Assembly (NCBI RefSeq): GCF_014218335.1
Contig: NZ_AP023367.1
Coordinates: 2,853,501 to 2,917,500 of the forward strand
Origin: Anaerocolumna cellulosilytica
Lineage (GTDB): Bacteria > Bacillota > Clostridia > Lachnospirales > Lachnospiraceae
Reading direction: 5' to 3'
Length of the DNA stretch: 64,000 nt
Of the stretch, positions 34,680 to 51,421 are shown piece by piece (the stretch's first letter is position 1; each line of letters begins with the position of its first letter). The translations under genes were made by a program, and so were the position numbers. The notes below the pieces were generated by a model. The model saw nothing but the letters and a program-made list of their open reading frames with translations, searched no databases and was not told where the DNA came from.

Positions 34680-35537
<858 letters not shown>

Positions 35538-36449: not shown

Positions 36450-36473
36450 GACTCGTTGTAAGTACTGGAAAAG

Positions 36474-36516
36474 GGACTGTCGCAATTCTGTAAATAGAAA
36501 ATGCTTGCAACAGTCC
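36474..36516 (-). terminator. Hairpin terminator after the histidine kinase gene
   Basis: GGACTGTTGCAA and its near complement TTGCGACAGTCC (one bulge) form a stem on the minus strand, about 50 bp after the kinase stop codon, followed by CTTTTCC. Confidence 0.65.
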
Positions 36517-36563
36517 TCTAAGAACGATTGGCGAATTAAAAATTGTAATGACCTTTAATAGTT

Positions 36564-37601
36564 TTAAACTTGTTCATTAGATAGATATACGGAAAATTTT
36601 GTTCCTTTACCAACTTCGGATGCTATTTTTATATAGCCGCCTTGTAGTGTAATAATCTTGCGTACTATGTATAACCCAATACCTATACCAGGAACTTCAT
36701 GTACTTCTTCTTCTCTATAAAAACGTTTAAATATTTCTGCTTGATGAGGCTCTGAAACTCCCTTTCCATTATCCACTATATCTATTTTTGTATACATTTC
36801 CCACCTGGTTACGCTTACATCTACTCTTCCACCTATAGGTGTATATTTTACTGCATTATCAAGAATATTGAACAGGGCTTCTGCTGTCCACTTAGTATCA
36901 TGGGGTACCATTAAATTTGAATCACAATCTACTGTAACTGTTATACACTTTTTTTCTGCCTGCATAACGATAGCTCCCAGCGCATCTGCCAATGTCTCAT
37001 ATATGGAATATTTCTTTTTCTCTAATACAATTACCCCTGCCTCCAGCCTCGAAGTCTTTATCATGGCTTGCATTAAAAAATCAAGCTTATCAAGTTGTCC
37101 TGCCATTGACCTCAATAATTCTATTCTTTTTTCTTTGGACAAATCCCCTTCTAACATAATTGAATACATCAATTTCAGATTTGCTATAGGTGTTTTAGTC
37201 TGGTGTGAAATATCAGAAATCAATTCTTGTAAAATGTTTTTTTCATTACTAATAATAGAACGATTTTCATTACTAATCTCATATAACCGAATCAGTCGAT
37301 GGTTAATTCTTGCCAACAATGTTTCTTCGTATAGTGCAGATTTAGGCTGTTCTTCTCCACGTATCATTAAATCCATACTATGACAAATATCGTCTGTAAA
37401 TTGTACGAGCTTTCTATGTAATAAGATAAAAAAACAAACAACCCAGGCTAAGTTAATTAAAAAAAACATAGCAATTATTAATGATACTATTATATTACCT
37501 GTAAATAAAAATATACAAAGAAGAAATATAGTGTCTATGATAAATACACAAATGCCCATAAAAATGTAAATATTTCTGATTGACACCTCTTTAGACTTCA
37601 A
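36564..37601 (-). CDS. Sensor histidine kinase with two membrane helices
   Basis: The roughly 345-residue kinase has two membrane helices (residues about 10-35 and 38-60) with only a few residues outside. A dimerisation/phosphoacceptor region follows with DISHQTKTPIANLKLMYSI (His near 133). The ATPase domain has N (FNILDNAVKYTP), G1 (DNGKGV) and G2 (GIGIGLYIVRKI) boxes. The short loop is typical of intramembrane-sensing kinases tied to ABC exporters. I prefer the TTG at 37601: it overlaps the response-regulator stop by four bases and follows GGGGGAAGG; a GTG at 37622 is the alternative. With the neighbouring regulator and ABC genes it probably senses a membrane-active compound. Confidence 0.9.
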   Translation of the reverse strand: MKSKEVSIRNIYIFMGICVFIIDTIFLLCIFLFTGNIIVSLIIAMFFLINLAWVVCFFILLHRKLVQFTDDICHSMDLMIRGEEQPKSALYEETLLARINHRLIRLYEISNENRSIISNEKNILQELISDISHQTKTPIANLKLMYSIMLEGDLSKEKRIELLRSMAGQLDKLDFLMQAMIKTSRLEAGVIVLEKKKYSIYETLADALGAIVMQAEKKCITVTVDCDSNLMVPHDTKWTAEALFNILDNAVKYTPIGGRVDVSVTRWEMYTKIDIVDNGKGVSEPHQAEIFKRFYREEEVHEVPGIGIGLYIVRKIITLQGGYIKIASEVGKGTKFSVYLSNEQV

Positions 37602-38296
37602 TTTTTTCCTTCCCCCATCCACATATATCCCATACTATATACTGTTTTAATATACTTATATCTATTATTTTCTATTTTATTACGAATTCGGCATATCATT
37701 GTGGTTAGAGTATGTTCATCAACAAAATTTTCATCGACATCCCACAGTTTCTCCAACAAGGTTTGTCTAGTCAAAACATTTTTAGGATTTGCTGTAAATA
37801 TTTTCAAAGTGCGATATTCCATTGGCGTAAATTCTATTAGTTGTCCATTTATAAAGGAAGTGAGCTTAGAAAAATTAATTAACAGATTGTCATCATCATA
37901 ACAATCATCCCAAGCTTGTCTAATCATTCGACGAAATAAAACATCAATTTTCTTTTGTAATACCCGAATTGGAAACGGTTTTGTCACATAATCATCTGCT
38001 CCTAATTCAAATCCCTTTATCATATCACTTTCCATATCATTTGCTGTTAAGAAAAATATGGCTGTATTTGTAGAACTCTTCTTTATTTTCTCACATAAAT
38101 CAAACCCATTACCATCAGGTAAATTTATATCAAGAATAATCAACTTATATTCCTCATCTTTAATAAGCTTTTGTGCGGTAACAGCTGAAGAAGCTGATTC
38201 TACCAAATATCCCTTATGGGTTAGACAGTAAGATAGATTCCTGCTCAATAATAGGTCATCTTCTACAATTAATATTTTCTCTGTCATCTGTTTCAT
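37598..38296 (-). CDS. OmpR-family response regulator
   Basis: The 232-residue regulator has a receiver domain (acidic pocket VEDD, phosphoacceptor Asp56 in LIILDINLPDGNG, Lys in DYVTKPF). A winged-helix output domain follows (LIEFTPMEYRTLKIF, then TRQTLLEKLWDVDENFVDEH, then TLTTMICRIRNKIE). The gene is coupled to the kinase gene by a four-base overlap. A direct repeat overlapping the -35 region of the ABC operon at 39629-39649 is a candidate binding site. The pair is divergent from the ABC genes and separated from them by the phospholipase gene. Confidence 0.93.
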   Translation of the reverse strand: MKQMTEKILIVEDDLLLSRNLSYCLTHKGYLVESASSAVTAQKLIKDEEYKLIILDINLPDGNGFDLCEKIKKSSTNTAIFFLTANDMESDMIKGFELGADDYVTKPFPIRVLQKKIDVLFRRMIRQAWDDCYDDDNLLINFSKLTSFINGQLIEFTPMEYRTLKIFTANPKNVLTRQTLLEKLWDVDENFVDEHTLTTMICRIRNKIENNRYKYIKTVYSMGYMWMGEGKN

Positions 38297-38494
38297 ACCT
38301 CTCTCCTGTTAAAATACAAAATACTAATCATAATTAAACAAGAAATTACATATTATTTTCTTTCATTTTGGCAAAATACTTTTAATAAATTTTATACCAA
38401 GTTCCATATATTAGCAATGTTTTAGCAAGAAATTAATTTAAAACAGTAAAGATTCTTCTAAATATATAACATCATTAAAGGGAACTTCACTTGA

Positions 38495-38527
38495 CAAAAA
38501 AGAAGGAGGTGTGAACTCCCTCCTTCC
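38495..38527 (-). terminator. Terminator after the phospholipase C-like gene
   Basis: On the minus strand GAAGGAGG and CCTCCTTC form an 8-bp stem with a 9-base loop followed by TTTTTT. It begins about 45 bp after the stop codon at 38571. Confidence 0.8.
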
Positions 38528-38570
38528 TTTTAACTATATACTTAGGAATATTGCCTCATTAACTATTATA

Positions 38571-39455
38571 TTAGTAAATCCCAACAGTTTTTCCAAATTT
38601 ATAGAGATACTGAGCCACTGTAGTAATGGCATTCTGAACCGATTGCCTTGCGGCTGACTCATATGTATCCTTTTGTTGTGCTTGTTCAACTAACGCATAA
38701 CTTTTCAGTGCCGCTCCATGTATTAAATCACCAACTGAACTATTTACTGCTGTTTGATATATACCATTGGCAAGAGTATTTCCATTTATATAAAAAGACG
38801 TTCTGTTTACATCAACATATTTTTCAAATTCTGAATGGTTGCTATTTAATGCAGTTAGGTTTGAGGCATGATGAGGTACATTCACATCTGATACATAATG
38901 CGTTCCACGTCCAATGTATTTGAATGCTTCTGTAACATTCCCAGCATTATAGCTTGCTACCGCACGATTAAAATATTCTACTGCTCTAGTTTTTGCTGTT
39001 GGAGACGATTGACCTAACCAATTTACTCCTGTCTTCGGATTATAGAAATGTCCCGCAAATGTTCCATAGTCAGTTTCATTTCCTAACTTGTCTGGCCAAT
39101 CTGTGTTCGCCATCATTTCAAGAGCATTTGCTTCACTGTTCATTACACTATTTCCCTGATCTCGATATAATATTGTTAACGCCGATGCCACAATATATTG
39201 ATGCGTGTGGTCATTACCACCACTTACAAATTGAACTGATATTCCATCCAATACACTACTGCTTTCATCAATTGCTTCGCGCAGTATTGGTGCATCCAAT
39301 TCATAGATTTCATCTGATCCATTGGCAATAGCGATTACCTTCTCTGGTAATCCATTTAACTCCTTCTCCTCAATTGAGGCAAATACGGTAACACTGCTGC
39401 TAATCATCAACAGCATACACACATAGCAAATTAATTTTTTTAATCCCTTCTTCAT
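38571..39455 (-). CDS. Secreted zinc-dependent phospholipase C-like protein
   Basis: The 294-residue protein has a signal peptide (KKGLKKLICYVCMLLMISSS, cleavage likely after VFA). The mature region follows the zinc phospholipase C pattern of Bacillus cereus PC-PLC and clostridial alpha-toxin N-domain. NDHTHQYIVASALTIL and NTDWPDKLGNETDYGTFAGH supply ligands, FKYIGRGTHYVSDVNVPHHA holds the HxxxD motif and further His, and HSEFEKYVDVN supplies His-x3-Glu. There is no C2-like C-terminal domain. It may cleave phospholipids outside the cell; whether it is a toxin cannot be said. I use the ATG at 39455 behind GGGAG; a TTG lies 15 bases upstream. It sits between the two-component system and the ABC exporter. 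Confidence 0.88.
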   Translation of the reverse strand: MKKGLKKLICYVCMLLMISSSVTVFASIEEKELNGLPEKVIAIANGSDEIYELDAPILREAIDESSSVLDGISVQFVSGGNDHTHQYIVASALTILYRDQGNSVMNSEANALEMMANTDWPDKLGNETDYGTFAGHFYNPKTGVNWLGQSSPTAKTRAVEYFNRAVASYNAGNVTEAFKYIGRGTHYVSDVNVPHHASNLTALNSNHSEFEKYVDVNRTSFYINGNTLANGIYQTAVNSSVGDLIHGAALKSYALVEQAQQKDTYESAARQSVQNAITTVAQYLYKFGKTVGIY

Positions 39456-39628
39456 AATAACTCCCTTCAATTAGATATTTAGGTTTTATAAAACCTATAA
39501 AAATGAATTACTTGATTATTTAATTTTCAAATATTAGTATACTACTTGTTTGAAAATTTTTCAATATTTTTCCATATTTTCCTTCTTTATTTTAAGTTAC
39601 TTTTTTTATAACAAAGGAATGAATTTGT

Positions 39629-39668
39629 TTTCTGTTAGGACATTTCTGTAACATTTGGCATTTATAAT
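39629..39668 (+). promoter_or_regulatory. Candidate activated promoter of the ABC exporter operon
   Basis: A TATAAT box (39663-39668) has no good -35 partner. The direct repeat TTTCTGT (39629-39635 and 39643-39649, 14-bp period) overlaps where it should be. This layout is common for OmpR-type activation and suggests control by the adjacent two-component system. Confidence 0.45.
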
Positions 39669-39698
39669 AGTATTATCTTATAGAGAGGAAAGGGTTAA

Positions 39699-40370
39699 AT
39701 GAATATTTTACAGACTAATGAATTAAAAAAATATTACAGTCAGGGATCGAATATAACAAAGGCACTAGATGGTATAAGCTTTTCTGTTGAAAAAGGAGAA
39801 TTTGTTGCTGTGGTCGGTACTTCTGGAAGCGGAAAATCCACATTGTTACATATGATTGGTGGATTGGACACCCCGACATCTGGTACTGTACTCGTTAAAA
39901 ACAACGACTTAACTAAATTGAATGATGAACAGGCTACTATTTTTCGTCGCCGAAATATAGGCTTTATATTTCAAAATTATAACCTTGTTCCAATCCTAAA
40001 TGTCTATGAAAATATTGTCCTTCCAGTTGACTTAGATGGTGAAATCGTAGACACAGCTTTTTTGGATGAGATTATTAACATGCTGTCATTAAGAGAAAAA
40101 TTGCAAAGCATGCCAAACAATCTCTCTGGTGGACAACAACAACGTGTAGCTATTGCCAGAGCGTTGGTTACCAAACCGGCTATTATTTTAGCAGATGAAC
40201 CAACGGGTAATCTGGATAGTAAAACAAGTGCAGATGTAATTGGATTACTTCAAATGAGTAGTAAAAAATACCAGCAAACCATTGTCATGATTACTCATAA
40301 TAATGAAATTGCACAACTTGCAGACCGAATCGTCCGAATTGAAGACGGACAGATTATAGACAGGCGGTGA
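39699..40370 (+). CDS. ABC transporter ATP-binding protein (MacB/LolD/BceA type)
   Basis: The 223-residue ATPase has Walker [10 protein letters not shown] (residues 40-48), the Q-loop in [12 protein letters not shown], the signature [15 protein letters not shown], and Walker B with D-loop [15 protein letters not shown]. The switch His is in [10 protein letters not shown]. The subfamily-typical [20 protein letters not shown] marks exporters paired with FtsX-like permeases. It is followed five bases later by the permease gene. The neighbouring two-component system suggests inducible defence against, or export of, a membrane-active peptide. Confidence 0.94.
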
Positions 40371-40374
40371 TGTA

Positions 40375-42765
40375 ATGTTCCAAAATAAAAATACTAAAAT
40401 TATAAAACAGTTATCAAATAGTAGTATTAAAGCGGATAAAAGACGTAATTTGTTTGTCATTCTCACCATTGCATTCGCAACTTGCCTAATGCTGGTTTTG
40501 GCTCTTAGTAACCTAGGTCGTTCTCGCGAAAATAAATTATTTTTACAAGGCAGATATCAAGCATCTTTCATAAAATTAAATAATGCAACCATTAATTCTA
40601 TGGAAATGCATAATTCAGTTGAAAAAATAGGCAGGAAGCTTGATATAACAACACAACGAGTGGATGATTATACGTTAAATATTGTTTTTAAAGATAGTGC
40701 TGCACTTCTTCTGCTCAGTTCACCAAAATTAATCGGACACATGCCAGAAAAGTCAAATGAAATCATAGTAGAACAATCTTATTTAGAGCATATTGGTCTT
40801 ACACCCACACTCAATCAACAAATTAAATTGGACTTAGGAGATAATAATGAGACAACATACACAGTATGCGGTATACTTAAAGGAAAAAATGACAGCAGAA
40901 GCTATCAAGTGATTCCCTCTGAAGCGCTTGTGGAAGCCATCACAAACGGAATGCCTTTATATGACACCTTAGTGCGATTCAAAGATACTCAAAATATACC
41001 AACCGATTATTTAAGGACAGAAATTAAGAATTTTGCAAAAGAGTTTAATATATCTGAAAAGGAATTTGTATATAGCTCCACATATTTTGACCTTGCAAAA
41101 GAAAGTTCTACCTTGGAGATAGCCGCTATAGTCATAGCAAGCATTATGATTGTAGTTGCCTGTTCATTAGTAATTTATAGCTTATTCTATATTTCAGTAA
41201 TAGGGAAAGCTCAAGCATATGGACGACTTAGAATAATCGGAACGACCAAAAAACAAATCAAAAGAATGGTACGAAAAGAAGGAATTAAACTAGCCTCTAT
41301 TGCTATTCCCGTTGGATTAATAGTTGGATGTATCATTAGTTATTTGTTAGTTCCAAAAGGCTGGCATTTGCCCACAACGATAATAAGTATCTTACTAATT
41401 ACTGTAGTAACAGAAATCACAATTTATATCGCAATACATACACCGGTAAAGATAGCCGCCTCTGTTTCACCTATAGAAGCAATACGTATTACACCTTATA
41501 CTGGCTTAGTGAAGGGTGAGTACTCAAAAAAGTTACATCATCCTATTACCCCCATTCGACTAGCGCAAATGAATTTTGTGAGAAACAAAAAAAAGACAAC
41601 ATTAACATTACTATCTCTTGGTTTTTCCGGTATACTATTAATGTGTGCTTCTGCTTATTTGAATTCTATTGATACAACTGAGATGGCAAAGCAAGCAATG
41701 CCCCGTGGAGATTTTAATATTACGCTGAATCCAACAGCTGTCACTGATTCATTTATAGAAAATTATACGCAATTGCAGAGTATGAATCCACTCAATAAAG
41801 ATTTAGAAGATGCCTTGTTGGCCATTGAGGGTGTAAATCATATAGAAAAATTTGTGGGATGTAAGTCTGAACTTATCTACCCAAATGGTGAAAAAAGTCA
41901 AGTCCGCGTAATAGGATTAACACAACAGCAGCTTAATGAATACAAAGCCAATTTATTAGAAGGTACAGCCGATTATGACGAACTAATAAAAAATAACGGA
42001 ATTTTAGTTGCTGATCCGGGAGGACTTATTAATCAACTCTATGGCTACACTGCAAAGCTTGATGATATAATATCCATAGAAACAGATGAGGGTACCTATA
42101 AAAAGTTTAAGGTAATGGGTATAATGAAGAATTTGAATATTGGTATTGATATGGCTTTTTACTTCGTCCCTGATGACTTAGTCCCCAAGTTAAAAAGTAA
42201 TGTATCCAACTTTAATACGCATTTTTTTGTACGTGCGGATAATATAAAGCTTAAACCTGTAGAAAAGCAGATATTTAATCTTGCTTCCCAAAATATAGGT
42301 TTAGAAGTAACTTCCATTAATGACGTTCAAAATTCCTTACAAAATCTATTAGACAATTACAAAATGCCCCTTTATGGACTAATCATATTTATTTCGGTGT
42401 TTGGATTAATTAATTTGATAAATACATTAATGACAAACTTAATTTCCAGACAACAGGAGTTTGGTATGTTACAATCAATAGGATTGAGTAATAAACAGCT
42501 TTCACATGTTATCCAATCCGAGTGTTTGTTATATATACTAGGAACATTGTTCCTGACCTTAACGATAGGAAGTATATGTGGTTATCTTCTATGTTCTGTC
42601 TTTAATCAAGTTGGGATTTACGGTAAGCTAACTTATCATTTTCCTGTATTGGAATTAGCATTATACTTTACATTCCTACTGCTGATTCAATTTTTATTCT
42701 CATATATTGCTATGAATATACTAAGAAAGAAGCCGTTAGTTCAACGGATTAAGATGATTGATTAA
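40375..42765 (+). CDS. FtsX-like ABC transporter permease
   Basis: The 796-residue permease has an N-terminal helix and a periplasmic-type domain, then three helices near residues 255-350 (ASIMIVVACSLVIYSLFYIS onward). A second copy of the layout follows with a helix near 415, a second large extracytoplasmic domain (about 435-660), and three C-terminal helices from LYGLIIFISVFGLINLINTL. Two FtsX domains in one chain fit the eight- to ten-helix permeases of Bce or MacB-like antimicrobial peptide modules. It may give immunity to the RiPP encoded 80 bp downstream on the other strand, but this is inference from proximity. Confidence 0.9.
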   Translation: MFQNKNTKIIKQLSNSSIKADKRRNLFVILTIAFATCLMLVLALSNLGRSRENKLFLQGRYQASFIKLNNATINSMEMHNSVEKIGRKLDITTQRVDDYTLNIVFKDSAALLLLSSPKLIGHMPEKSNEIIVEQSYLEHIGLTPTLNQQIKLDLGDNNETTYTVCGILKGKNDSRSYQVIPSEALVEAITNGMPLYDTLVRFKDTQNIPTDYLRTEIKNFAKEFNISEKEFVYSSTYFDLAKESSTLEIAAIVIASIMIVVACSLVIYSLFYISVIGKAQAYGRLRIIGTTKKQIKRMVRKEGIKLASIAIPVGLIVGCIISYLLVPKGWHLPTTIISILLITVVTEITIYIAIHTPVKIAASVSPIEAIRITPYTGLVKGEYSKKLHHPITPIRLAQMNFVRNKKKTTLTLLSLGFSGILLMCASAYLNSIDTTEMAKQAMPRGDFNITLNPTAVTDSFIENYTQLQSMNPLNKDLEDALLAIEGVNHIEKFVGCKSELIYPNGEKSQVRVIGLTQQQLNEYKANLLEGTADYDELIKNNGILVADPGGLINQLYGYTAKLDDIISIETDEGTYKKFKVMGIMKNLNIGIDMAFYFVPDDLVPKLKSNVSNFNTHFFVRADNIKLKPVEKQIFNLASQNIGLEVTSINDVQNSLQNLLDNYKMPLYGLIIFISVFGLINLINTLMTNLISRQQEFGMLQSIGLSNKQLSHVIQSECLLYILGTLFLTLTIGSICGYLLCSVFNQVGIYGKLTYHFPVLELALYFTFLLLIQFLFSYIAMNILRKKPLVQRIKMID

Positions 42766-42770
42766 TTCAT

Positions 42771-42826
42771 TAAAAGTAGCCGCTCTAATCCTTTGCATAC
42801 GCAAGTTTCAAGCGGCTATTTTTACT
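42771..42826 (+). terminator. Bidirectional terminator between the ABC operon and the RiPP cluster
   Basis: AAAAGTAGCCGCT and AGCGGCTATTTTTACT form a 10-bp stem with a 25-base loop. There is a T-rich tail on the plus strand and a shorter one on the minus strand, so it can end both convergent units. Confidence 0.8.
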
Positions 42827-42842
42827 AAATCTTTTACAAGTA

Positions 42843-42989
42843 TTAGTTATCTGTACTTAGCCAGGCAGTATCACCCCAGCAGTCATACATACAATGAACC
42901 TTTATGGTGCCACAGATTTCACTCCAGCCATATATATTCACTTCTGCTTCCTCAAGCTCTTTTCTTTCTTTTACAATCTCATCATTCAT
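42843..42989 (-). CDS. RiPP precursor peptide 1 (C-x6-C-x3-C core)
   Basis: The 48-residue peptide has an acidic/basic leader containing ELEEAEVNIY and a C-terminal core with CGTIKVHCMYDC followed by WGDTAWLSTDN. The ATG at 42989 has an ideal AAGGAGG site seven to eight bases upstream; a longer frame to 43037 only adds an unlikely tail across that site. It shares the pattern ELxEAEVN[IV]Y, CGxxKxxCMxDC and a final W-[LI]-[ST]-T-[DE] with precursor 2. It is the last gene before the terminator, downstream of three radical SAM genes. Radical SAM enzymes would be expected to install thioether or C-C links at the core; which bond is unknown. I recognise no named precursor family. Confidence 0.85.
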   Translation of the reverse strand: MNDEIVKERKELEEAEVNIYGWSEICGTIKVHCMYDCWGDTAWLSTDN

Positions 42990-43056
42990 GTTACAATCCT
43001 CCTTCTTTATGCTAAGGTGAAAACTCCTATTGCACATAATTACTTTAAAATTGATT

Positions 43057-43082
43057 CCCTGGAATGACTCCTCATTCTAATC
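43057..43082 (-). other. Hairpin between the two precursor genes
   Basis: On the minus strand GAATGA, a GGAG loop and TCATTC form a small perfect hairpin, with outer GATT and AATC able to pair. It lies just past the stop of precursor 2 and could set the relative transcript amounts of the two peptides. Confidence 0.5.
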
Positions 43083-43095
43083 ATATCCTACGTAC

Positions 43096-43233
43096 TTATT
43101 TTTCTGTTGTAATCCATGGAGTTAAATTAATACAATCAACCATACAACCATATTTAGGATCTCCACAACCGTATGTATAAACGTTAACTTCTGCTTCCTG
43201 AAGTTCTGTTGTGGTTTTGTTGTTTTCATTCAT
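43096..43233 (-). CDS. RiPP precursor peptide 2 (C-x6-C-x3-C core), unannotated small ORF
   Basis: An ATG at 43233 with a GGGAGGAG site opens a 45-codon frame. The leader contains ELQEAEVNVY. The core is CGDPKYGCMVDC followed by INLTPWITTEK. Relative to precursor 1 the three Cys, the Gly after the first, the Lys, CMxDC, and the Trp near the end are conserved while other core residues vary. This is the pattern expected for a leader recognised by shared enzymes and a diversified product. It lies 132 bp after the last radical SAM gene and 106 bp before precursor 1. I am confident it is a real gene because of the homology and ribosome site. Confidence 0.85.
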   Translation of the reverse strand: MNENNKTTTELQEAEVNVYTYGCGDPKYGCMVDCINLTPWITTEK

Positions 43234-43365
43234 TTCGTACTCCTCCCTTCGTTTTATTTTCTATATAAAACTAAAATCAGATATCTTCACTATTAAAAAT
43301 ATCCGAAGATAGTTCTATAGCAATTATTAATTCCTCCTTAGTAAGTTATTTTTTCAATAATTACA

Positions 43366-44610
43366 CTAAACTATGTATTTCAGATACTGCTTTTCCTCGC
43401 AAAATTTAACAAACGAATTTATATTTTGTAAATTACTGCATTTTGAATTATAAATTAATAAGTTATACGTTATTATAACTTTCTGAAGCATACAATCTAT
43501 TTTTACATGATTAAACTGCTCCGCTCCGCAACCTCCGCCACACAAATATTTAAACTTACAATCTTCGCAGTATTCTTTTAATTCAACATGAAACAACTTC
43601 TTAACATCCATTTGTTTGATTAATTCATTCCATTTTTTTAGTATCATTTTTGTAGAATCTGTATTTATATCACCAACGCGAAATTCTCTATTTGCTAATG
43701 AATGACAAATGTATATATTCCCATCCGGAAAAATAACTAGTGCTCTTCCAAGGGCACTGCACTGCTTTTGTACCTGAATATTTCTAAAAAAAATCTGCGC
43801 TAATTTAGTGCATGTATATTTTTTTGCAATGATATATTTTGCAATACATAAATATACCTGCAATTTTTCTTCCGAACTCATTATCTTTATATTATCGTCT
43901 AAGGCACTCCCAGTTGATGAAACAAAATTAAAAATAAAATCTGTATTTTGATTTGCAGCGATATCAAGAATCTGATACATTGCTGAATCATTATTGTTAT
44001 AAACAAATGATAACGTTACCTCTGTCTTAATTACGTTCATTCTTTGAATGAACGTAATTAAATTTTCAGTACAATTAGAAAAATGTGCTGTACTTATTTC
44101 TACCCGATTTACTCTTCCTGCTATTCGATTTATGATAGTATCATTTAATAGTAACCCATTACTCTGAACAATCACCTGCGCTTCTGTTTTAGTATATATG
44201 CAGTCTATTAACTCTGCTATTTCATTATGTATAAAGGGTTCTCCCCCACTTATGATTATTCTTCTTGGCTTGATTTCATTTATCATTGGAACTATATTAT
44301 TCATAAGGGTATCGACTGTTAACTCAAAAGAATTTATTTCTTCTTTCTTATTCGATCGCATTGAGCAGAATGTACATGACAAATTACAATTGTTTGTAAT
44401 AAATAGATAGACAGTATTTACTTGAGCTACCCGTTTTCTTTTTAACTCACTTTGTTCTTTCAAAATTCTATTAATAATACTATATGAATTTTCCACTTCA
44501 CACTCTTTATAGTATTCCGTATTCACAGAAATGCAGATTTCCTCCACCGAGTCTATAAGTATAGTACGTTTTCCCAATTCTACCGTATGGATATCCTTTA
44601 ATTTAGACAT
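43366..44610 (-). CDS. Radical SAM/SPASM peptide maturase 1
   Basis: The 414-residue enzyme has the cluster motif CNLSCTFC (Cys 75, 79, 82), IIISGGEPFIHNE as the GGE motif, and a SPASM-type C-terminus. The latter has QCSALGRALVIFPDGNIYICHS and later YCEDCKFKYLCGGGCGAEQFNH with a further Cys. About 70 residues before the radical SAM core could form a leader-binding (RRE-like) domain; this is inference from position. I use the ATG at 44610 behind AAAGGAG; it overlaps the end of maturase 2 by eight bases. It is the enzyme gene closest to the precursors. Auxiliary clusters in SPASM proteins usually serve thioether or C-C crosslinking. Confidence 0.88.
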   Translation of the reverse strand: MSKLKDIHTVELGKRTILIDSVEEICISVNTEYYKECEVENSYSIINRILKEQSELKRKRVAQVNTVYLFITNNCNLSCTFCSMRSNKKEEINSFELTVDTLMNNIVPMINEIKPRRIIISGGEPFIHNEIAELIDCIYTKTEAQVIVQSNGLLLNDTIINRIAGRVNRVEISTAHFSNCTENLITFIQRMNVIKTEVTLSFVYNNNDSAMYQILDIAANQNTDFIFNFVSSTGSALDDNIKIMSSEEKLQVYLCIAKYIIAKKYTCTKLAQIFFRNIQVQKQCSALGRALVIFPDGNIYICHSLANREFRVGDINTDSTKMILKKWNELIKQMDVKKLFHVELKEYCEDCKFKYLCGGGCGAEQFNHVKIDCMLQKVIITYNLLIYNSKCSNLQNINSFVKFCEEKQYLKYIV

Positions 44611-45706
44611 GTCCAATACTCCTTTTCTGATAATACTGTTTGAATGCTTCCTGTTGTGTCGAACTTAGGTTGCTTCTTAGTAAATTAAATATAAACTTCG
44701 TCATATTACAGTTGATTGTTATTGGTTTATAAAAATCTCTATGCACCTCATAGTTATTCATAATACAACCACATACCCTGCAATGTGTAAACTCTGAACA
44801 TTTTATACAACTTTCATTTGTACTACAATTTAACTTAACAAAGCTTCGTATTTTATCAACATCCAACCCTTCCGATACATCGCCTACTTTTACCATCTCA
44901 TCAATTTCTGTACAAGGGTATATAATTCCATCTACCGTGACATAAATTGAAATGAGTCCTGCCTTACAGCCAAAAAAATGTGATAATGTGAATAAATTAC
45001 TGATACGGTCCTCAAAATACTTCCAATATATATTTTTACCATGCCTTCGAATGTTACTATAAAAGACAAAAGCTTTTTCCATCTGTACGCATAACCTATT
45101 AAAGTCCTCTTCTGACCAAGTAGAATATATATTAATTGTACTTTCCACAATTTTGAATCCCAAATCTGTTAAATGTAACATATTCTCATATAATGAATTG
45201 CAATTATTTGTTGTTATTACATTTGCCACATGACATATCTTCTCTGTTTTTTTCTCATATTCCCATATTAAGGGTAATTTTGAAATAATATCTTTATAAC
45301 TTCCCTTATGATGATAGTATTCTCTATTTAGGTTATGTACCTCTTCTGTACCATCAATACTAACTTTTAAATCAAAATTATGCTGAATTAAAAATCTGAC
45401 TTTTTCCTGATCTAGTAATGTCCCATTGGTTGTGGTACTGAATAATATGCTTAATCCGCTTTCTAAACCTTTCTTAGAGGCATAATCAACACAAAACTCT
45501 ATTAATTCAAATGCCAACATTGGTTCCCCGCCAATAAAATAGATCACTAAGGTTTTATCCCTCTGCTTTCTTGCTTCATGAATAGAAAGATCCATTGCAC
45601 TTTTAGCGGTATCCTTTGGCATTTTTCTGTTTTTCTTTTCACCAAGATAACAATATTTACAGTTTAAATTACATTGATTTACAACTTCCAATGATAACGT
45701 ATACAT
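44603..45706 (-). CDS. Radical SAM/SPASM peptide maturase 2
   Basis: The 367-residue enzyme begins almost directly with the cluster motif (MYTLSLEVVNQCNLNCKYCY; Cys 12, 16, 19). It has FIGGEPMLAFELIEFCVDYA and the anaerobic-maturase-like region LKVSIDGTEEVHNLNREYYH. The SPASM part has FGCKAGLISIYVTVDGIIYP followed by CTEIDE, and CIKCSEFTHCRVCGC near the end. It resembles maturase 3 more than maturase 1 in layout. It lacks an N-terminal recognition domain, so it may depend on a partner for leader binding. The ribosome site is GGGGAGG. The gene lies between the protease and maturase 1. Confidence 0.88.
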   Translation of the reverse strand: MYTLSLEVVNQCNLNCKYCYLGEKKNRKMPKDTAKSAMDLSIHEARKQRDKTLVIYFIGGEPMLAFELIEFCVDYASKKGLESGLSILFSTTTNGTLLDQEKVRFLIQHNFDLKVSIDGTEEVHNLNREYYHHKGSYKDIISKLPLIWEYEKKTEKICHVANVITTNNCNSLYENMLHLTDLGFKIVESTINIYSTWSEEDFNRLCVQMEKAFVFYSNIRRHGKNIYWKYFEDRISNLFTLSHFFGCKAGLISIYVTVDGIIYPCTEIDEMVKVGDVSEGLDVDKIRSFVKLNCSTNESCIKCSEFTHCRVCGCIMNNYEVHRDFYKPITINCNMTKFIFNLLRSNLSSTQQEAFKQYYQKRSIGHV

Positions 45707-45724
45707 TGTAATCCTCCCCTTGTT

Positions 45725-46750
45725 TTACAAATAAGGTTGCTCAATCAGCAAACCATACTCTTTTTGTAAACTCATTCTCTCCTCTATTGAATAGATAGGA
45801 TACCTTGTATATATCTTTCTAAAGAGAATTCCTGTGTTTATTATAATTCTGTCTAATTCTTTTTTATTATTTGTATAATAGCCATAGTTATCTATATCAA
45901 TTAAAAACGTTCCATTTTCTAAAGAAATTTTGCTTTTTGTATGCAAAAAGCTCTCTACCTCATTAAACACTACTATATCACTACATAAAAAGCATTCTTT
46001 TGCAAACCTTCTTTGCAACAAATCTTTTGGACGGTTACTCATGCAAATAACATAATTATTTTTGTAATCTACAAAATCAGGTATGCTATTAACTCTGTTT
46101 TTCTCCACTTTTTTAATATACTCTAATACAGTACTATTTCTTATTTCTTCATAATAAACACTTAACATTCCCGTAATCCTTGCTGCTAAAAAACTATTTC
46201 CACCCATTAAGTATTTTTGATTTAATTGATAATATGAAACCATACTATCAAAGGCAAAACTAATATTGTTATTTTTTGTGTCGTATCTAAAGAATTTATT
46301 TACTTCTTTTCCAAAATTATTATCTACTCCAATAACATTATCAAAGCTTGCAGGGTATGCAACATAGTTCTCATTACTATGTGCTGCTACTAATAATACT
46401 CCCTTACTCTTAGCCTCCTCACATATTTTATAAAAATAATCCGAATATAACTCTTCTATACCTAAACTTATATTTATGATGCCGACCCCCTCATCCACCA
46501 GCGCATTGATGCTATCAGCCATAAGTATTCCATTTTTTTGATTTTCATTTCCTATAATATTATATAGAATTATTTCTGCTAACGGATTTTCGGCTAAGAT
46601 AGCGGCACAAACATACTCTGCATGAGTGAATGGATAGTTTTCTTCAGATATTATTTTTATACCCGGTCTTATTCTTCTTACTTCTATCTTTTTATCCTTA
46701 AAAAAATCATGATTTAATTGTGCATCTGTATCTATGACTCCTATCTTCAT
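45725..46750 (-). CDS. Subtilisin-like protease of the RiPP cluster
   Basis: The 341-residue protein is a compact, divergent S8 protease: Asp in IGVIDTDAQLNHDFF (residue 7), His in FTHAEYVCAAILA (about 43), the oxyanion Asn region AAHSNENYVAYPASFDNVIG, and Ser in MGGNSFLAARITGM (about 186). The usual GTSMA is changed to GNSFLA and HGTHVAG to THAEYVC, but the triad seems intact. There is no signal peptide, so it should act in the cytosol, most likely removing the leader. The ABC exporter next to it has no peptidase domain of its own. About 120 residues after the catalytic core are of unknown function. Confidence 0.82.
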   Translation of the reverse strand: MKIGVIDTDAQLNHDFFKDKKIEVRRIRPGIKIISEENYPFTHAEYVCAAILAENPLAEIILYNIIGNENQKNGILMADSINALVDEGVGIINISLGIEELYSDYFYKICEEAKSKGVLLVAAHSNENYVAYPASFDNVIGVDNNFGKEVNKFFRYDTKNNNISFAFDSMVSYYQLNQKYLMGGNSFLAARITGMLSVYYEEIRNSTVLEYIKKVEKNRVNSIPDFVDYKNNYVICMSNRPKDLLQRRFAKECFLCSDIVVFNEVESFLHTKSKISLENGTFLIDIDNYGYYTNNKKELDRIIINTGILFRKIYTRYPIYSIEERMSLQKEYGLLIEQPYL

Positions 46751-46774
46751 AATGACTCCCGTATCAAGGTCATA

Positions 46775-48439
46775 TTATTTTACCAACACCATTTCTTTAT
46801 CAGTTAATTCATAAATAACATTGGCTTGCTCTAATTCACTCTGATTATGTGTTGACATAATAATAATCCTATCTTTTGAAATTTTTTTCAGTAACTTATA
46901 AAATTTTTCTCTTCTTATCCCATCAATATTTGAAACTGCCTCATCGAACACTAATATCTGAGGAAACTTTAGTATGTTTCTGGCAATATCTATTCTACGC
47001 ATCTGTCCTTCTGAAAAATTAGGTGGTTCAACTTTTAATATTGTATTCCACCTATCTTCTAAAGAGTTCACATCATCATAAATATCTAAGTCTTCACATA
47101 TGGCCTGTATTTGCTCAAAGGTTGCCTTATTGGTTAAGTTCATATTCTGTATAATGGTGTCCTCAAAAAACATAGATTTTTGCATTACATATCCCAGTCT
47201 ATTCCAATAACTTTCTAAATTATATTCACATAAACTAATCCCATTAATTAATATACTACCATCTTTAGGCTCCAGAATTCCAGCTAACAGCTTAAACAGA
47301 GTACTTTTACCTTGTCCACTTTTTCCTGATATACCATAAATTTTACCTGTCTCGAAATACCCGTTAATATTATTTAAAATATTGTGCTCTACATTATCAA
47401 ATCCAAAATTAACATTTTTTAACTCAATGGTACTGACTTCTCCTTGTAATAATAATTTATGATTCGAGAGATTCGGATAGCTTAAGACTGTAAATACATC
47501 ATTCAGAGCAACTATAGAAGTGTGGTACTCGTTAGAAAAAGATGCAATATTAATTATAGGATTCATAATAATTGCTTGGTAGTTCATTAGTATCATAATT
47601 GTACCAATCGTCATTCTATTCTCGAATACTTCTTTTGCTCCAACAAGCCATATAATCACCGTCCCTATAAATTGTACAACCAGTGTTATAATTGTATTCA
47701 AAAAATATATAAAATTTTGATGATTAGTGCATTTTTTATATTTTTGATTTTCATCATAGTATCTTAAATGTACATACTCATAACATTGAAATAATCGAAC
47801 CATAAACCAGTTATTATAGCTGTTATTTAATACATTTGTCATATCATTATATCCCTGAAGAACTTTTTCACTAGTTTTTTTAATTTTTTTTCCTACTATT
47901 CTGCTTATAAAGGGTATACTACTCGTCAGCAATACAACAGCTAAAGCAATTTTCATATGTATTAAAAACATATATGGTATTATAATAATTAAAGTTACGA
48001 CATTTGACACCAGAGTAATTATACTAGTAATTCCACACTGCTTAATTATTGAAATATCTTTATCCGTTTTTAACAAAATATCACTTATTTTCATCTTCTT
48101 AAAGAATGATGGAGATACTATACCTAATTTATCATGTATACTTTGCCGAACATCAGCAGCTACTTCTTCTGAGGCTAAAGAAGCCATATATCTTTGTAAA
48201 TATGTAATAATATAATTGGCCAAAAGCATAATCAGAAAAAGCACCAATCTAATTAAAAAATATGTAAATGTTGATTTGTCCGGTACACTTAATTCATCCA
48301 CAATCTGCCCCTGCAGTTTTGGCCTTATCAATGAAATACCCGCATCAAAAATAATGAATAACGTTATAATAAAATACAATGGTATCAGGGTCTTTTTCAT
48401 CGCATATTGTTTTATAAATAGGATAAAATTCTTGTCCAA
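46775..48439 (-). CDS. ABC exporter (fused permease and ATPase) of the RiPP cluster
   Basis: The 554-residue half-transporter has an N-terminal six-helix membrane domain (about 1-310) and a C-terminal ATPase. The ATPase has GKSGQGKSTLFKLLAG, the Q-loop region LGYVMQKSMFFEDTI, a degenerate signature FSEGQMRRIDIARNIL, Walker B ILVFDEAVSNIDG, and the switch His in STHNQSE. The signature SEGQ differs from the usual SGGQ. No N-terminal C39 peptidase domain is present. The start is a TTG at 48439 with AAGGAG ten bases upstream; the next ATG is 13 codons in and lacks a site. It would export the matured peptide as a homodimer. Confidence 0.88.
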   Translation of the reverse strand: MDKNFILFIKQYAMKKTLIPLYFIITLFIIFDAGISLIRPKLQGQIVDELSVPDKSTFTYFLIRLVLFLIMLLANYIITYLQRYMASLASEEVAADVRQSIHDKLGIVSPSFFKKMKISDILLKTDKDISIIKQCGITSIITLVSNVVTLIIIIPYMFLIHMKIALAVVLLTSSIPFISRIVGKKIKKTSEKVLQGYNDMTNVLNNSYNNWFMVRLFQCYEYVHLRYYDENQKYKKCTNHQNFIYFLNTIITLVVQFIGTVIIWLVGAKEVFENRMTIGTIMILMNYQAIIMNPIINIASFSNEYHTSIVALNDVFTVLSYPNLSNHKLLLQGEVSTIELKNVNFGFDNVEHNILNNINGYFETGKIYGISGKSGQGKSTLFKLLAGILEPKDGSILINGISLCEYNLESYWNRLGYVMQKSMFFEDTIIQNMNLTNKATFEQIQAICEDLDIYDDVNSLEDRWNTILKVEPPNFSEGQMRRIDIARNILKFPQILVFDEAVSNIDGIRREKFYKLLKKISKDRIIIMSTHNQSELEQANVIYELTDKEMVLVK

Positions 48440-48444
48440 TACGT

Positions 48445-49605
48445 CTAAGCTCCTTGTCTATTAATCGCTGTTTTAATCTCACTACCCAGACTACTCAATT
48501 TAAGATGAGAAATATTTATGTATTCGTAGTGCTTACCAAGTGCTTGATATAGTTTTTCACCGTTCTGTGAACTAAAATGGTTTAATATTTTTTTAACTAC
48601 AGGATAAAATACATGTTCATATTCACAGGTTGAATCAGCAGGAATATTAATACTTCCCGTTCTAATATAATTCATATAGCCACATTTCATTCCATGACAA
48701 AAATCTTTAATTTTGCATTCCGCACATTTATTGTCTTGCTTATTGTATAGTGAAACAGCAATTTTTTTCGCACGATTCACATCCACCGCTTCGTCAATCG
48801 TTCCAATTATATACTGTGTATTATCAGTTAAAAATCCACAAGGATATATAGAACCATCCGGCATAATCTTAATAGACCCTATTCCTGCATCACACATAGA
48901 GAAACAGTTACCATAATCACATAACAAACTAAAGAATTTACCATCAAATTGATCGATTGAAAATTTCCTTCCATTATTATATTCATGAATATAATAATGA
49001 GCGACTGACTCTACCTGGGATTTAAATACTTCTAATGATTTCTTCGAAAACTCCATATAGACATCCGGTATCATACATATATAATCCAGCCCATTTTCAT
49101 GTAAAAAAACTACATTTTCATATAAAAATGGTATAGTATTCTCCGCTATTGTCATTCGGACAGAATACGGTGTCCCACTATCCCGTACTTTAATAATATT
49201 TTCAAATATTTTGTCATAACTGCATTCTCCATTAGCCGTTACACGATTTAATTCATGTGCTTCTTTGCATCCATCAAAGCTAAGTCTAAGGGTAAAATTA
49301 TTATTTTTTGTTAATTCAATCAGTGAAGAATCCAATAAAGAGCAATTGGTGGTCATATAATACTTAACTTCTCTTTCTGGATAATTTTTAGCAATGTAGT
49401 CCAAAGCCATAAAAATAAGTTCTTTTTTCAATAATGGTTCACCACCCATAAAATCAATTAATATTTTTTGGGATTTATCATATTTAAAAATAAATCTTAT
49501 AATATCAATTAACCTATTTTCATTTAGTTCAATATGATGGTTATAATTTTCATAGCAATAAGAACATATAAAATTACATTTTGTTGTTAAATATATGGTG
49601 TACAT
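48445..49605 (-). CDS. Radical SAM/SPASM peptide maturase 3
   Basis: The 386-residue enzyme starts MYTIYLTTKCNFICSYCYEN (Cys 10, 14, 17) and carries FMGGEPLLKKELIFMALDYI and LRLSFDGCKEAHELNRV. The SPASM region has FSMCDAGIGSIKIMPDGSIY followed by PCGFLTD, then KCAECKIKDFCHGMKCGYMNYI. About 70 C-terminal residues lie beyond the last cysteine. Its start matches maturase 2 (MYTxxL...CNxxCxYCY), which suggests duplication. It is the first gene of the cluster, behind a near-perfect promoter. All three maturases keep the Cys triad and auxiliary-cluster cysteines. Confidence 0.88.
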   Translation of the reverse strand: MYTIYLTTKCNFICSYCYENYNHHIELNENRLIDIIRFIFKYDKSQKILIDFMGGEPLLKKELIFMALDYIAKNYPEREVKYYMTTNCSLLDSSLIELTKNNNFTLRLSFDGCKEAHELNRVTANGECSYDKIFENIIKVRDSGTPYSVRMTIAENTIPFLYENVVFLHENGLDYICMIPDVYMEFSKKSLEVFKSQVESVAHYYIHEYNNGRKFSIDQFDGKFFSLLCDYGNCFSMCDAGIGSIKIMPDGSIYPCGFLTDNTQYIIGTIDEAVDVNRAKKIAVSLYNKQDNKCAECKIKDFCHGMKCGYMNYIRTGSINIPADSTCEYEHVFYPVVKKILNHFSSQNGEKLYQALGKHYEYINISHLKLSSLGSEIKTAINRQGA

Positions 49606-49637
49606 ATCTTCCCTCGTCTCAATATGGTATATTCTGT

Positions 49638-49666
49638 ATTATAATTCTATTTTTTTACATTTTCAA
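49638..49666 (-). promoter_or_regulatory. Near-consensus promoter of the RiPP operon
   Basis: The minus strand has TTGAAA (49661-49666), exactly 17 bp, then TATAAT (49638-49643). The start of transcription would fall near 49631, 25 bases before the ATG of maturase 3. No obvious operator is next to it. Confidence 0.75.
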
Positions 49667-49719
49667 GTGCTTTTAACATAAAATTTATAAACTACATTAA
49701 ATTTATTTTATCCAAATTA

Positions 49720-49764
49720 AAAAATGATAAATGTTCTCTCTTTTACTGAACATTTACCATTTTT
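49720..49764 (-). terminator. Terminator after the transglutaminase-like gene
   Basis: AAAATGGTAAATGTTC pairs with GAACATTTATCATTTT (one G-T pair) around an 11-base loop, followed by T residues on the minus strand. It separates that gene from the RiPP operon promoter. Confidence 0.8.
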
Positions 49765-49780
49765 TAGTTATTTATTCTAT

Positions 49781-51421
49781 TTAATTAAACGTTATAGTAA
49801 GTACATTCTTCTTATAACTGGCATTAATATTTGATACAAAATTATAATTATATATATATGTTTCACAATACGTATTCACATTACTTCCTTTTATTTTAAA
49901 AGTATATGTACGTTTCTTACCATCTTTGCTTAAGTAAGCAGCATAAGTAGCGGCTCTCCTTAAATCATCAGTCGTTTTTATATTATTTCTGTCAATTAAC
50001 TTCCAGTTCTTACTAAACTTCTCAGGAGTATAATCCTCTTCTTCCCAATAATGTGTCCCCATAAACTCATAGGCAGACTTTAAGAAAAATCTTCTGTAAG
50101 GTTTTAAATCCTTTGTACTGTGTGTAATGACAGCATCTGTTGCTGTATCTACATGATAGACTTTTCCGCCTAAGTATACTCTATTCCAGTCAAGTCCTTC
50201 ACCGTCACCTATGATATTGTTAGGAATTAACAGACGATTACAGCACTCCTTAAATAAATCAGCAAAGGCATTTCTCTTATACTCCTTATCCACCATTAAA
50301 TGCTTTGCATCATATAAGTTATCTCGCATAACGTACTTAGGAAAGGCATCCATATACCAGATATCCTCATACACATTATACTTTGTCACAATTGCATCAT
50401 GAATGGCTTTTAATTTTTCTTTATCTGTATTGCAGCCTTTGATTGCTTTTTTTACAAATTCATAGATTTCATCCTTTTGTAATTTATCCTTTGCTAAAGG
50501 CTTCTTACGAAAATATAAGGTTTTTGTCTTACTGTCATATTCAAATAACTCTCTATTATCACCATTCCAATCTTCTATGATATCAGAAAGCTTATAGTAA
50601 TATTGATGACCAATCGTATATCTGTTCCTTCTAATCACGTCTGCGATATAATAATTTTTTTCAACCTTGTCAATTTTTCCAACGATGGTACCTGCCTTTT
50701 TAAAACTTTTCCATTCTACATTAAAATATGCTCTTTGATTAAGATCTATAATTCTATTTTCACCTAATGGATACATACCATTATTAAAAATTAAAAACTC
50801 GTAGTCATCCTCTGGAATAAAGAATTCTCCGCCGTCCTCTATGGCATAAGAAACTCTGCTCCTTGAAATATAGAGTGTCATCGGTGACAACTCATAACTT
50901 CCGTCAGCTTTCGTATATGGCAGACCCAGTTCCTCGCCTATAACAAAATCCTCTGGATATTTATACTTTACTAAAATCACTGCCTTTGATGCGACAAAAT
51001 CATCCCCGAACGCTACTATGCTTATAAGGTTTTCCCTTTGCTTAAATATATCCGCTTCTATAGCCTTTATAACACTTTCTATGGAATCATAATTTCCCTT
51101 TAGTGATATGTCTATGTACTCTTCCTTTTCAACACTGCCGCCTACTGCACTGGAATCCTTAAATTCTCCCCGATACAATATATTAAGAGTTATCTCCTTA
51201 AATTGATGACTTATTATTGTAATATCCTCAGCTTCATAATTCTTCGATTCTAGTTCCTCTAAAATAGCATACTCATAATTATACTCCAAATAAATCTCTG
51301 TAACCGTAACCTCTTTTTCACGGGTAGTACCTGCATAAACCGTATTCGCCGTACCTTGTGTTAAAAACACCATAAACAATACACTTAAAACTACAATGGT
51401 TATTCCAGCTTTCCTCTTCAT
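49781..51421 (-). CDS. Secreted protein with a degenerate transglutaminase-like domain
   Basis: The 546-residue protein has a signal peptide (AGITIVVLSVLFMVFLTQG, cleavage near VYA). About 270 residues of beta-rich sequence follow, and then a helical KLKAIHDAIVTKYNVYED segment that normally precedes a transglutaminase core. The core reads YKRNAFADLFKECCNRLLIP, then IIGDGEGLDWNRVYLGGKVYH, then VDTATDAVIT. Compared with the usual GxCxGYAxAF / HAWNxV / WYxVDxTWD pattern, the catalytic Cys and His positions appear replaced while the Asp is kept. It may therefore be a binding domain rather than an enzyme. The AAGGAGA site supports the ATG. It has its own terminator, and a link with the RiPP cluster is not supported. 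Confidence 0.75.
   Translation of the reverse strand: MKRKAGITIVVLSVLFMVFLTQGTANTVYAGTTREKEVTVTEIYLEYNYEYAILEELESKNYEAEDITIISHQFKEITLNILYRGEFKDSSAVGGSVEKEEYIDISLKGNYDSIESVIKAIEADIFKQRENLISIVAFGDDFVASKAVILVKYKYPEDFVIGEELGLPYTKADGSYELSPMTLYISRSRVSYAIEDGGEFFIPEDDYEFLIFNNGMYPLGENRIIDLNQRAYFNVEWKSFKKAGTIVGKIDKVEKNYYIADVIRRNRYTIGHQYYYKLSDIIEDWNGDNRELFEYDSKTKTLYFRKKPLAKDKLQKDEIYEFVKKAIKGCNTDKEKLKAIHDAIVTKYNVYEDIWYMDAFPKYVMRDNLYDAKHLMVDKEYKRNAFADLFKECCNRLLIPNNIIGDGEGLDWNRVYLGGKVYHVDTATDAVITHSTKDLKPYRRFFLKSAYEFMGTHYWEEEDYTPEKFSKNWKLIDRNNIKTTDDLRRAATYAAYLSKDGKKRTYTFKIKGSNVNTYCETYIYNYNFVSNINASYKKNVLTITFN

What the first reader, a model, noticed from the sequence alone, without database searches (positions are those of the whole stretch)
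42843..49605. RiPP cluster with three SPASM radical SAM enzymes, paired precursors, subtilisin-like protease and ABC exporter
Seen: seven consecutive minus-strand genes with very short gaps or overlaps, encoding three radical SAM/SPASM proteins (cluster motifs CNLSCTFC, CNLNCKYC, CNFICSYC), a compact S8 protease, an ABC exporter without a peptidase domain, and two short Cys-containing peptides at the 3' end. Known: SPASM radical SAM proteins beside small Cys-rich ORFs mature sactipeptides, ranthipeptides and related RiPPs. Inference: maturation by three different or cooperating enzymes, cytosolic leader removal by the S8 protease, then export. Three maturases for peptides with only three Cys, and a protease instead of a C39 exporter domain, is a combination I do not match to a named class.
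Basis: partly seen in the sequence, partly recalled or inferred. Interest (0 to 1): 0.92.

Follow-up and report, generated by a model that had tools for sequence, protein, structure and literature searches.

The report
Triple radical-SAM cluster with CxxDC peptides
A bacterial gene set appears to build, cut and export a small cross-linked peptide, and the peptide shares one invariant five-residue signature (Cys-x-x-Asp-Cys) with a scattered group of similar gene sets whose chemistry has not been studied.

Summary
The seven genes are real: three SPASM radical SAM enzymes with intact motifs, a compact S8 protease, an ABC exporter without peptidase domain and two three-Cys precursors. They belong to a 12-gene block (36564-49605), shared with Anaerocolumna sp. 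AGMB13025, that adds a two-component system, a Zn-phospholipase-C-like protein and an ATPase/FtsX pair. Fourteen further clusters combine a radical SAM enzyme with an N-terminal, probably leader-binding domain (rSAM1), a PapB-like one without it (rSAM2), a QhpE-like S8 protease and an exporter. All 23 precursors counted in the 15 clusters carry C-x-x-D-C; 8 clusters were chosen without using the motif. In 94 control loci 3 of 1501 small ORFs have it. Best reading: a RiPP with Cys-Asp thioether crosslinks, cytosolic leader removal, export and FtsX-type self-protection; chemistry and activity are inferred. The third enzyme is an extra PapB-like one here, a second rSAM1 in another genome. The window branch is divergent: without it, profiles do not single out its rSAM_C or exporter. 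Prior art: 'Cluster 115' of Kostenko 2022 (3-5 rSAM, peptidase, Asp-Cys peptide; uncharacterised) is probably the same kind. New variant of a known, unstudied kind.

The parts
42843..42989 (-). pepB, precursor peptide, 48 aa; Cys26, core C33-M-Y-D36-C37
   Evidence: ORF with AAGGAGG site; CxxDC
43096..43233 (-). pepA, precursor peptide, 45 aa; Cys23, core C30-M-V-D33-C34
   Evidence: ORF with GGGAGG site; CxxDC; 49% identical to pepB
43366..44616 (-). rSAM_C, rSAM1 type, 76 residues ahead of CxxxCxxC (putative leader-binding domain), TTG start
44603..45706 (-). rSAM_B, extra PapB-like SPASM enzyme without N-terminal domain
   Evidence: PapB NF047865 213.8 bits, cut-off 340; tree
45725..46750 (-). 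compact S8 protease, QhpE-like, catalytic Asp at residue 7 so no room for a signal peptide
   Evidence: NF049966 92 bits, cut-off 165; catalytic residues
46775..48439 (-). ABC exporter, membrane and ATPase domains, no C39 peptidase
48445..49605 (-). rSAM_A, PapB-like SPASM enzyme, rSAM2 type, no N-terminal domain
   Evidence: PapB NF047865 186.8 bits; sister to the rSAM2 clade 77/90
40375..42765 (+). FtsX-type permease (796 aa), putative immunity or sensing
   Evidence: PF02687; 28% identical counterpart in L078
39699..40370 (+). ATPase partner of the FtsX permease
   Evidence: PF00005; 67% in L078; 49-70% in 7 of 9 related loci
38571..39470 (-). zinc-dependent phospholipase-C-like protein, role unknown
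   Evidence: PF00882; 56% in L078
37598..38296 (-). response regulator
   Evidence: PF00072 and PF00486; 49% in L078
36564..37622 (-). histidine kinase
   Evidence: PF02518 and PF00512; 48% in L078

Best explanation
It is a bacteriocin-like RiPP cluster. Two precursors of 45 and 48 residues carry an acidic leader (E-A-E-V-N) and a three-Cys core with C-x-x-D-C. The three SPASM enzymes act in the cytosol. rSAM_C, the only one with an N-terminal extension, most likely binds the leader and works with the PapB-like rSAM_A, which has none. rSAM_A or rSAM_B joins the first Cys of CxxDC to the Asp three residues on (a PapB/QhpD-type thioether) and the other enzymes modify the remaining two Cys; rSAM_B is an extra PapB-like enzyme of this lineage. 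The compact S8 protease then removes the leader in the cytosol as QhpE does, and the exporter ships the mature peptide. The ATPase/FtsX pair gives self-protection or senses the peptide and the two-component system regulates. Shown: gene content, intact motifs, conservation, the invariant precursor motif. Inferred: the bonds, the order of steps, who does what, and the antibacterial role.
For: Precursor motif CxxDC in 22 of 22 precursors of 14 clusters plus one on a plasmid; 8 of 15 clusters were chosen by S8 or rSAM1 profile without the motif; control 3 of 1501 small ORFs. rSAM_A and rSAM_B are nearest PapB; PapB links Cys to Asp and takes Cys-Xn-Asp with n = 0-6 in vitro (PMC9413430 passages). 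S8 nearest QhpE and, as a profile, intracellular subtilisins; QhpD/E/F order from PMC7876137 passages. rSAM1 profile aligns with CteB from profile position 26, so over its N-terminal part too. rSAM1 and rSAM2 fused in one ORF in L068. ATPase homologue in 7 of 9 related loci.
Against: No chemistry was measured. A review reports that PapB mostly fails on CX2D (PMC8172795 passages), against the in vitro result. PapB and QhpE matches are under the family cut-offs. With profiles built without window and L059, rSAM_C is not among the nine best rows shown and the exporter ranks fourth; S8 leads by 111.7 to 102.4 and L059's S8 does not lead. No Pfam PqqD domain in the 12 rSAM1 members scanned, and the window's rSAM_C was not in that profile. 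Structure job unfinished. ATPase/FtsX was not found in L161 and L214 nor annotated near the p_TW11 cluster.
Confidence: 0.68

Rival explanations
1. Same RiPP logic but different bonds: the enzymes install sactionine (S to alpha-carbon) or carbon-carbon links, for instance to the aromatic residues near the C terminus, and the Asp of CxxDC is needed for recognition only.
For: rSAM_C scores best with WgkB (64.8 bits, cut-off 650) and StsB (58.6 bits, cut-off 625); rSAM1 of L063 and L079 score best with StsB (145.8 and 96.9 bits); many precursors end in or near Trp or Tyr.
Against: Two of the three enzymes are nearest PapB and the one invariant spacing is Cys to Asp.
Confidence: 0.25
2. The product is a signal or a metal-binding peptide rather than a bacteriocin; the FtsX pair and two-component system sense it.
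For: A homologous two-component system lies beside the cluster in window and L078; an FtsX system fits sensing as well as immunity; Cys/Asp cores could bind metal (inference).
Against: A homologous two-component system was found in 1 of 9 related loci (L078). FtsX, maturases, S8 and exporter diverge fast (27-33%) while ATPase, kinase and regulator keep 48-67%, which looks more like peptide and immunity changing together; indirect.
Confidence: 0.3
3. A quinohemoprotein-like system: the small Cys/Asp protein becomes a subunit of an enzyme, as QhpC does.
For: QhpE-like S8, PapB/QhpD-like rSAM and an ABC exporter, as in qhp operons.
Against: No QhpA, QhpB or QhpG counterpart among the 15 proteins of 34680-51421 that were scanned (the rest of the window was not scanned for them). 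Precursors are 45-48 aa against a gamma-subunit of about 9 kDa.
Confidence: 0.04

Closest known systems
Kostenko et al. 2022 (PMC9062424), SSN 'Cluster 115'
   Same: 3 to 5 rSAM enzymes, a peptidase, a hydrolase, a precursor with at least three Cys of which one is in an Asp-Cys motif (section 4 read); the window has three rSAM, S8, a PLC-like hydrolase and three Cys with D-C
   Different: Identity not shown: figure and network files were not held. Here most clusters have two rSAM, and the motif is narrowed to CxxDC
PapB/PapA ranthipeptide (freyrasin)
   Same: rSAM_A and rSAM_B nearest PapB; Cys and Asp close together
   Different: PapA has six CX3D and one maturase; here one CX2D followed by a further Cys, and two or three maturases; scores under the PapB cut-off
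QHNDH gamma-subunit maturation (QhpC, QhpD, QhpE, QhpF)
   Same: rSAM thioether enzyme, S8 leader protease in the cytosol, ABC exporter
   Different: no QhpA/B/G counterpart seen in the part scanned; short peptides; S8 under the QhpE cut-off
Lachnocin-type and CcpM-type clusters
   Same: SPASM maturase with a QhpE-like S8 nearby (L181, L018; L222)
   Different: one long maturase that scores 838 and 807 bits with lachnocin, or 495 bits with CcpM (cut-off 500); S8 of 415-569 residues
CteB, SCIFF maturase (5wgg)
   Same: best solved relative of rSAM_B (1.5e-38) and of the rSAM1 profile (8e-30)
   Different: one maturase for a six-Cys peptide (recalled)

Membership tests
CxxDC multi-rSAM group (defined here; probably Kostenko Cluster 115) | precursor with C-x-x-D-C | tested here: met
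   pepA and pepB
CxxDC multi-rSAM group (defined here; probably Kostenko Cluster 115) | rSAM1 + rSAM2 + compact S8 + exporter in one cluster | tested here: met
   profiles incl. window: rSAM1 394, rSAM2 410 and 417, S8 359, ABC 708 bits
CxxDC multi-rSAM group (defined here; probably Kostenko Cluster 115) | each protein recognised by profiles built without the window and L059 | tested here: inconclusive
   rSAM_A 241.7 (best unrelated 219.7) and S8 111.7 (102.4) lead; rSAM_B 204.7 is under 219.7; rSAM_C and ABC not separated
CxxDC multi-rSAM group (defined here; probably Kostenko Cluster 115) | falls in SSN Cluster 115 | not testable with these tools
   network files not held
PapB family (NF047865) | score over the curated cut-off of 340 bits | tested here: not met
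   213.8 and 186.8 bits
Ranthipeptides | thioether to beta- or gamma-carbon | not testable with these tools
   needs MS and NMR
Sactipeptides | thioether to alpha-carbon | not testable with these tools
   needs MS and NMR
QhpE (NF049966) | score over the curated cut-off of 165 bits | tested here: not met
   92 bits
QHNDH operon | qhpA, qhpB, qhpG present | tested here: not met
   absent among the 15 proteins scanned in 34680-51421; rest of the window not scanned
AC3_0185 peptides (TIGR04118) | score over the curated cut-off of 35 bits | tested here: not met
   pepA 14.1 bits; the one hit over the cut-off elsewhere has CxxxC repeats, no CxxDC and no rSAM in its 19-kb region

The most novel reading that the evidence does not exclude
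CxxDC peptides are a RiPP class of their own: an obligate pair, one leader-binding rSAM and one PapB-like rSAM without a leader-binding domain, works on the same complex and makes two interlocked crosslinks on five residues (Cys to Asp, plus a different bond on the next Cys). Three-enzyme systems arose at least twice (extra PapB-like enzyme in Anaerocolumna, second rSAM1 in G633) and add a third bond.
Probability: 0.35. Interest if true: 0.8.

Novelty: new variant of a known kind. Interest (0 to 1): 0.62.

Why it matters
A five-residue invariant signature and a defined minimal gene set turn a short mention in print into a testable RiPP group: substrate site, enzyme pair and a natural comparison of two- and three-enzyme clusters are named, and the window's own genome holds one of each. 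If the pair makes interlocked crosslinks, it would show how a leader-binding rSAM can serve a partner that lacks such a domain. A copy on a Clostridioides difficile plasmid suggests that the products may matter in gut competition.

Tried and rejected
Single-protein scans found no relatives: S8 in viral contigs, rSAM_C in genome contigs. The A1 scan of genome contigs kept 80 of 92 loci; by tblastn only L078 and L079 among them have S8 and exporter too. The weak TIGR04118 matches (E 0.035 for pepA, 0.0097 for one L213 peptide) were followed and dropped. The order-wide S8 search is mostly long subtilase-like frames; of the 15 regions fetched after hold both rSAM types. L328 (Acetoanaerobium) has an rSAM2-like gene (206 bits) but no S8 or CxxDC: not a member. 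L222 has a CSTDC peptide in a CcpM-type setting: counted as a control hit. Two CxxDC frames overlapping exporter genes (L064 6327-6485, L216 10420-10728) were judged chance and left out of the 23. The viral-contig scan with the rSAM1 profile gave 58 loci, best E 1e-17, not examined. Promoter-like sites were at chance level (51 against 49.9); terminator-like 5 against 2.0. The structure job for rSAM_C never finished (last asked).

Limits: in the genome searches only 4-6 candidates per genome were scored, so those counts are lower bounds. The control loci include other phyla and other rSAM neighbourhoods. Composition-keeping shuffles of one precursor per cluster give CxxDC in 0.5 to 2.9% of cases; rows are related, so I do not multiply them. 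Some rSAM1/rSAM2 rows of later loci were read from stop to stop, so their N-terminal lengths are upper bounds.

Literature: ten searches. No characterised CxxDC peptide appeared in the listings; 'CXXDC' hit one sulfur-metabolism paper (listing only). Most subscription papers are not held; a 2022 atlas of radical SAM RiPPs was seen only in a reference list.
Full report
What is there. The seven minus-strand genes of the finding are present with the stated cluster motifs. Each rSAM has CxxxCxxC and SPASM-type cysteine patterns, though Pfam's SPASM model passes its cut-off only in rSAM_C. The exporter has membrane and ATPase domains and no C39 domain. The S8 protein has 341 residues with its catalytic Asp at residue 7, so there is no room for a signal peptide or propeptide. 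pepB most likely starts at 42989 behind AAGGAGG. The two precursors come last in the row, each with its own ribosome site.

Wider anatomy. It has a matching locus (L059/L078): precursor, rSAM_A, rSAM_B, rSAM_C, exporter, PLC-like protein, S8, with regulator, kinase, ATPase and FtsX beside it. Of 16 window genes compared, the 10 from 36564 to 49605 have counterparts in the 21-kb locus L078 and the 6 outside have none there (the two precursors were not queries). Identity is 48, 49, 56 and 67% for kinase, regulator, PLC-like protein and ATPase, but 27-33% for the rSAMs, exporter, S8 and FtsX: the peptide-facing parts change fastest. In the 15 genomes of the genus, the own one included, only G308 has an rSAM_C relative of this strength (4e-51; next 5.7e-18).

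A larger group. The S8 is nearest QhpE (92 bits, cut-off 165); rSAM_A and rSAM_B are nearest PapB (186.8 and 213.8, cut-off 340). Loci in the window's own genome (L063), G147 (L064), G276 (L068), Clostridioides (L079) and G633 (L161) hold the same kinds of gene. From these I built profiles for rSAM1 (long N-terminus), rSAM2 (PapB-like, short N-terminus), S8 and exporter. Among 15 regions fetched after the S8 searches, 3 hold both rSAM types with S8 and exporter genes (L213, L214, L216; in L213 the exporter match lies in two ORFs). A class-wide rSAM1 search of 391 genomes gave five, the own included, above 337 bits, then a gap to 196 (window and L063 rows were in the query). The four new ones (L248-L251) all have rSAM2, S8 and exporter; four regions of three genomes from below the gap (L252-L255) have no S8 and no CxxDC ORF. 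Of 289 genomes of the phylum, the own and one frame-broken relic (G1076) passed 1e-60. In plasmids, 3 of 72,556 records matched; I read one.

The signature. Each of the 15 clusters has at least one small ORF with C-x-x-D-C: 22 precursors in 14 clusters and one on C. difficile plasmid p_TW11, annotated 'hypothetical protein'. L213 alone has eight. The motif was derived on seven clusters (window, L059, L063, L064, L068, L079, L161); the other eight were chosen by S8 or rSAM1 similarity without it, and 8 of 8 have it. Control: 94 non-member loci, 1,572,287 bases, 1501 small ORFs with a ribosome site, 3 with CxxDC (2 of 271 with three or more Cys); among 92 C..xC occurrences the fourth residue is Asp 3 times. 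An earlier count that included cluster flanks gave 8 of 1606, five of them further L213 precursors. In the leaders, [FLVIA]-[DE]-[AVI]-x-x-Q occurs in 16 of 22, E-x-E-[VI] in the three Anaerocolumna precursors, and neither in L064, L068 and L216: common, not universal. Of the 14 precursors scanned with NCBIfam none passes a cut-off.

Three enzymes. In the rSAM2 tree rSAM_A with L059A is sister to the 12 other rSAM2 rows (77/90), while rSAM_B with L059B is a separate pair (100/99) grouped with outgroup rows (82/77). rSAM_C with L059C is sister to the 13 other rSAM1 rows (SH-aLRT 84; quick tree with long branches). So the window has the common pair plus one extra PapB-like enzyme. In G633 (L161) the third enzyme is a second rSAM1. 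In G276 (L068) rSAM1 and rSAM2 form one 753-residue protein.

Limits of the link. Profiles built without window and L059 rank rSAM_A (241.7) and L059A (244.2) first, rSAM_B (204.7) under one unrelated row (219.7), the window's S8 first (111.7 against 102.4) but L059's S8 fourth (91.8), the exporter fourth (328.3), and rSAM_C not among the nine best rows shown. The window branch is divergent; its place in the group rests on the gene set and the precursor motif.

Mechanism. PapB joins Cys to the beta-carbon of Asp, natively in CX3D and in vitro in CX0-6D, incompletely at 0 and 6 (PMC9413430, abstract and passages); a review says that PapB mostly fails on CX2D (PMC8172795, passages). QhpD makes Cys-Asp/Glu thioethers, QhpE removes the leader before export through QhpF (PMC7876137, passages). 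The window has a counterpart of each. The rSAM1 profile (window not included) aligns with the SCIFF maturase CteB from profile position 26 and chain residue 17, so over the part ahead of the radical SAM domain (that this part of CteB is a leader-binding domain is recalled); Pfam shows no PqqD domain in the 12 members scanned. rSAM1 proteins have 75-126 residues ahead of CxxxCxxC, rSAM2 proteins 9-38. The S8 profile best matches intracellular subtilisins. I infer: leader held by rSAM_C, Cys-Asp link by rSAM_A or rSAM_B, remaining Cys by the others, S8 cut, export, self-protection by ATPase/FtsX. The ATPase has homologues of 49-70% identity in 7 of 9 related loci; L161 and L214 lack one in the stretch read, and none is annotated near the p_TW11 cluster.

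Known or new. QhpE-like S8 beside SPASM maturases is known ground: L181 and L018 (lachnocin model, 838 and 807 bits, cut-off 550) and L222 (CcpM, 495 bits, cut-off 500). Kostenko et al. 2022 describe 'Cluster 115' with 3 to 5 rSAM enzymes, a peptidase, a hydrolase and a precursor with three or more Cys and an Asp-Cys motif, product unknown (section 4 read). This is probably the same kind; I could not test identity. Added here: the CxxDC definition with a test on clusters chosen without it and a control, the rSAM1/rSAM2 pair rule, two origins of the third enzyme, the linked regulation and FtsX genes, and the two-enzyme clusters (11 of 15: L063, L064, L068, L079, L213, L214, L216, L248-L251, plus L269 make 12; three-enzyme: window, L059, L161). 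Ten searches of the held library listed no characterised member. To be plain on that count: 12 of 15 clusters have the two-enzyme set (one of them fused) and 3 of 15 have three enzymes.

Noticed in passing
L063 (G000:C1:3538001-3556000), 3839-10129: The window's own genome has a second, two-enzyme CxxDC cluster with precursor at 7573-7746; its S8 ends in a stretch that weakly resembles acyl carrier protein (TIGR00517, E 0.0037).
   Followed up: partly
L068 11087-13348: rSAM1 and rSAM2 are fused in one 753-residue ORF.
   Followed up: partly
L213 3310-3751, 7206-7714, 16806-17096: One cluster carries eight CxxDC precursors in three groups, each group near an ATPase/FtsX match.
   Followed up: partly
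L269 (NZ_CP045225.1) 7983-13341: A mobilizable Clostridioides difficile plasmid carries a complete two-enzyme cluster; all genes have generic names in the record.
   Followed up: partly
L268 (G1076) 6598-9415: rSAM1 and exporter matches are split over several frames: a broken copy or assembly errors, outside the class.
   Followed up: partly
window 38571-39470; L059 6250-7107: A Zn-phospholipase-C-like protein with a signal-like N terminus belongs to the shared block; its role in a peptide cluster is unexplained.
   Followed up: partly
L222 4267-4443: A CSTDC-containing Cys-rich peptide between an S8 gene and a CcpM-like maturase in a genome of the same genus; probably another RiPP type.
   Followed up: partly
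window 49781-51421: 546-residue protein directly upstream of rSAM_A with no Pfam match and no counterpart in L078.
   Followed up: no
window 34680-35501: NifH-family protein (PF00142, 430.8 bits) next to the cluster; the genes around it were not studied.
   Followed up: no
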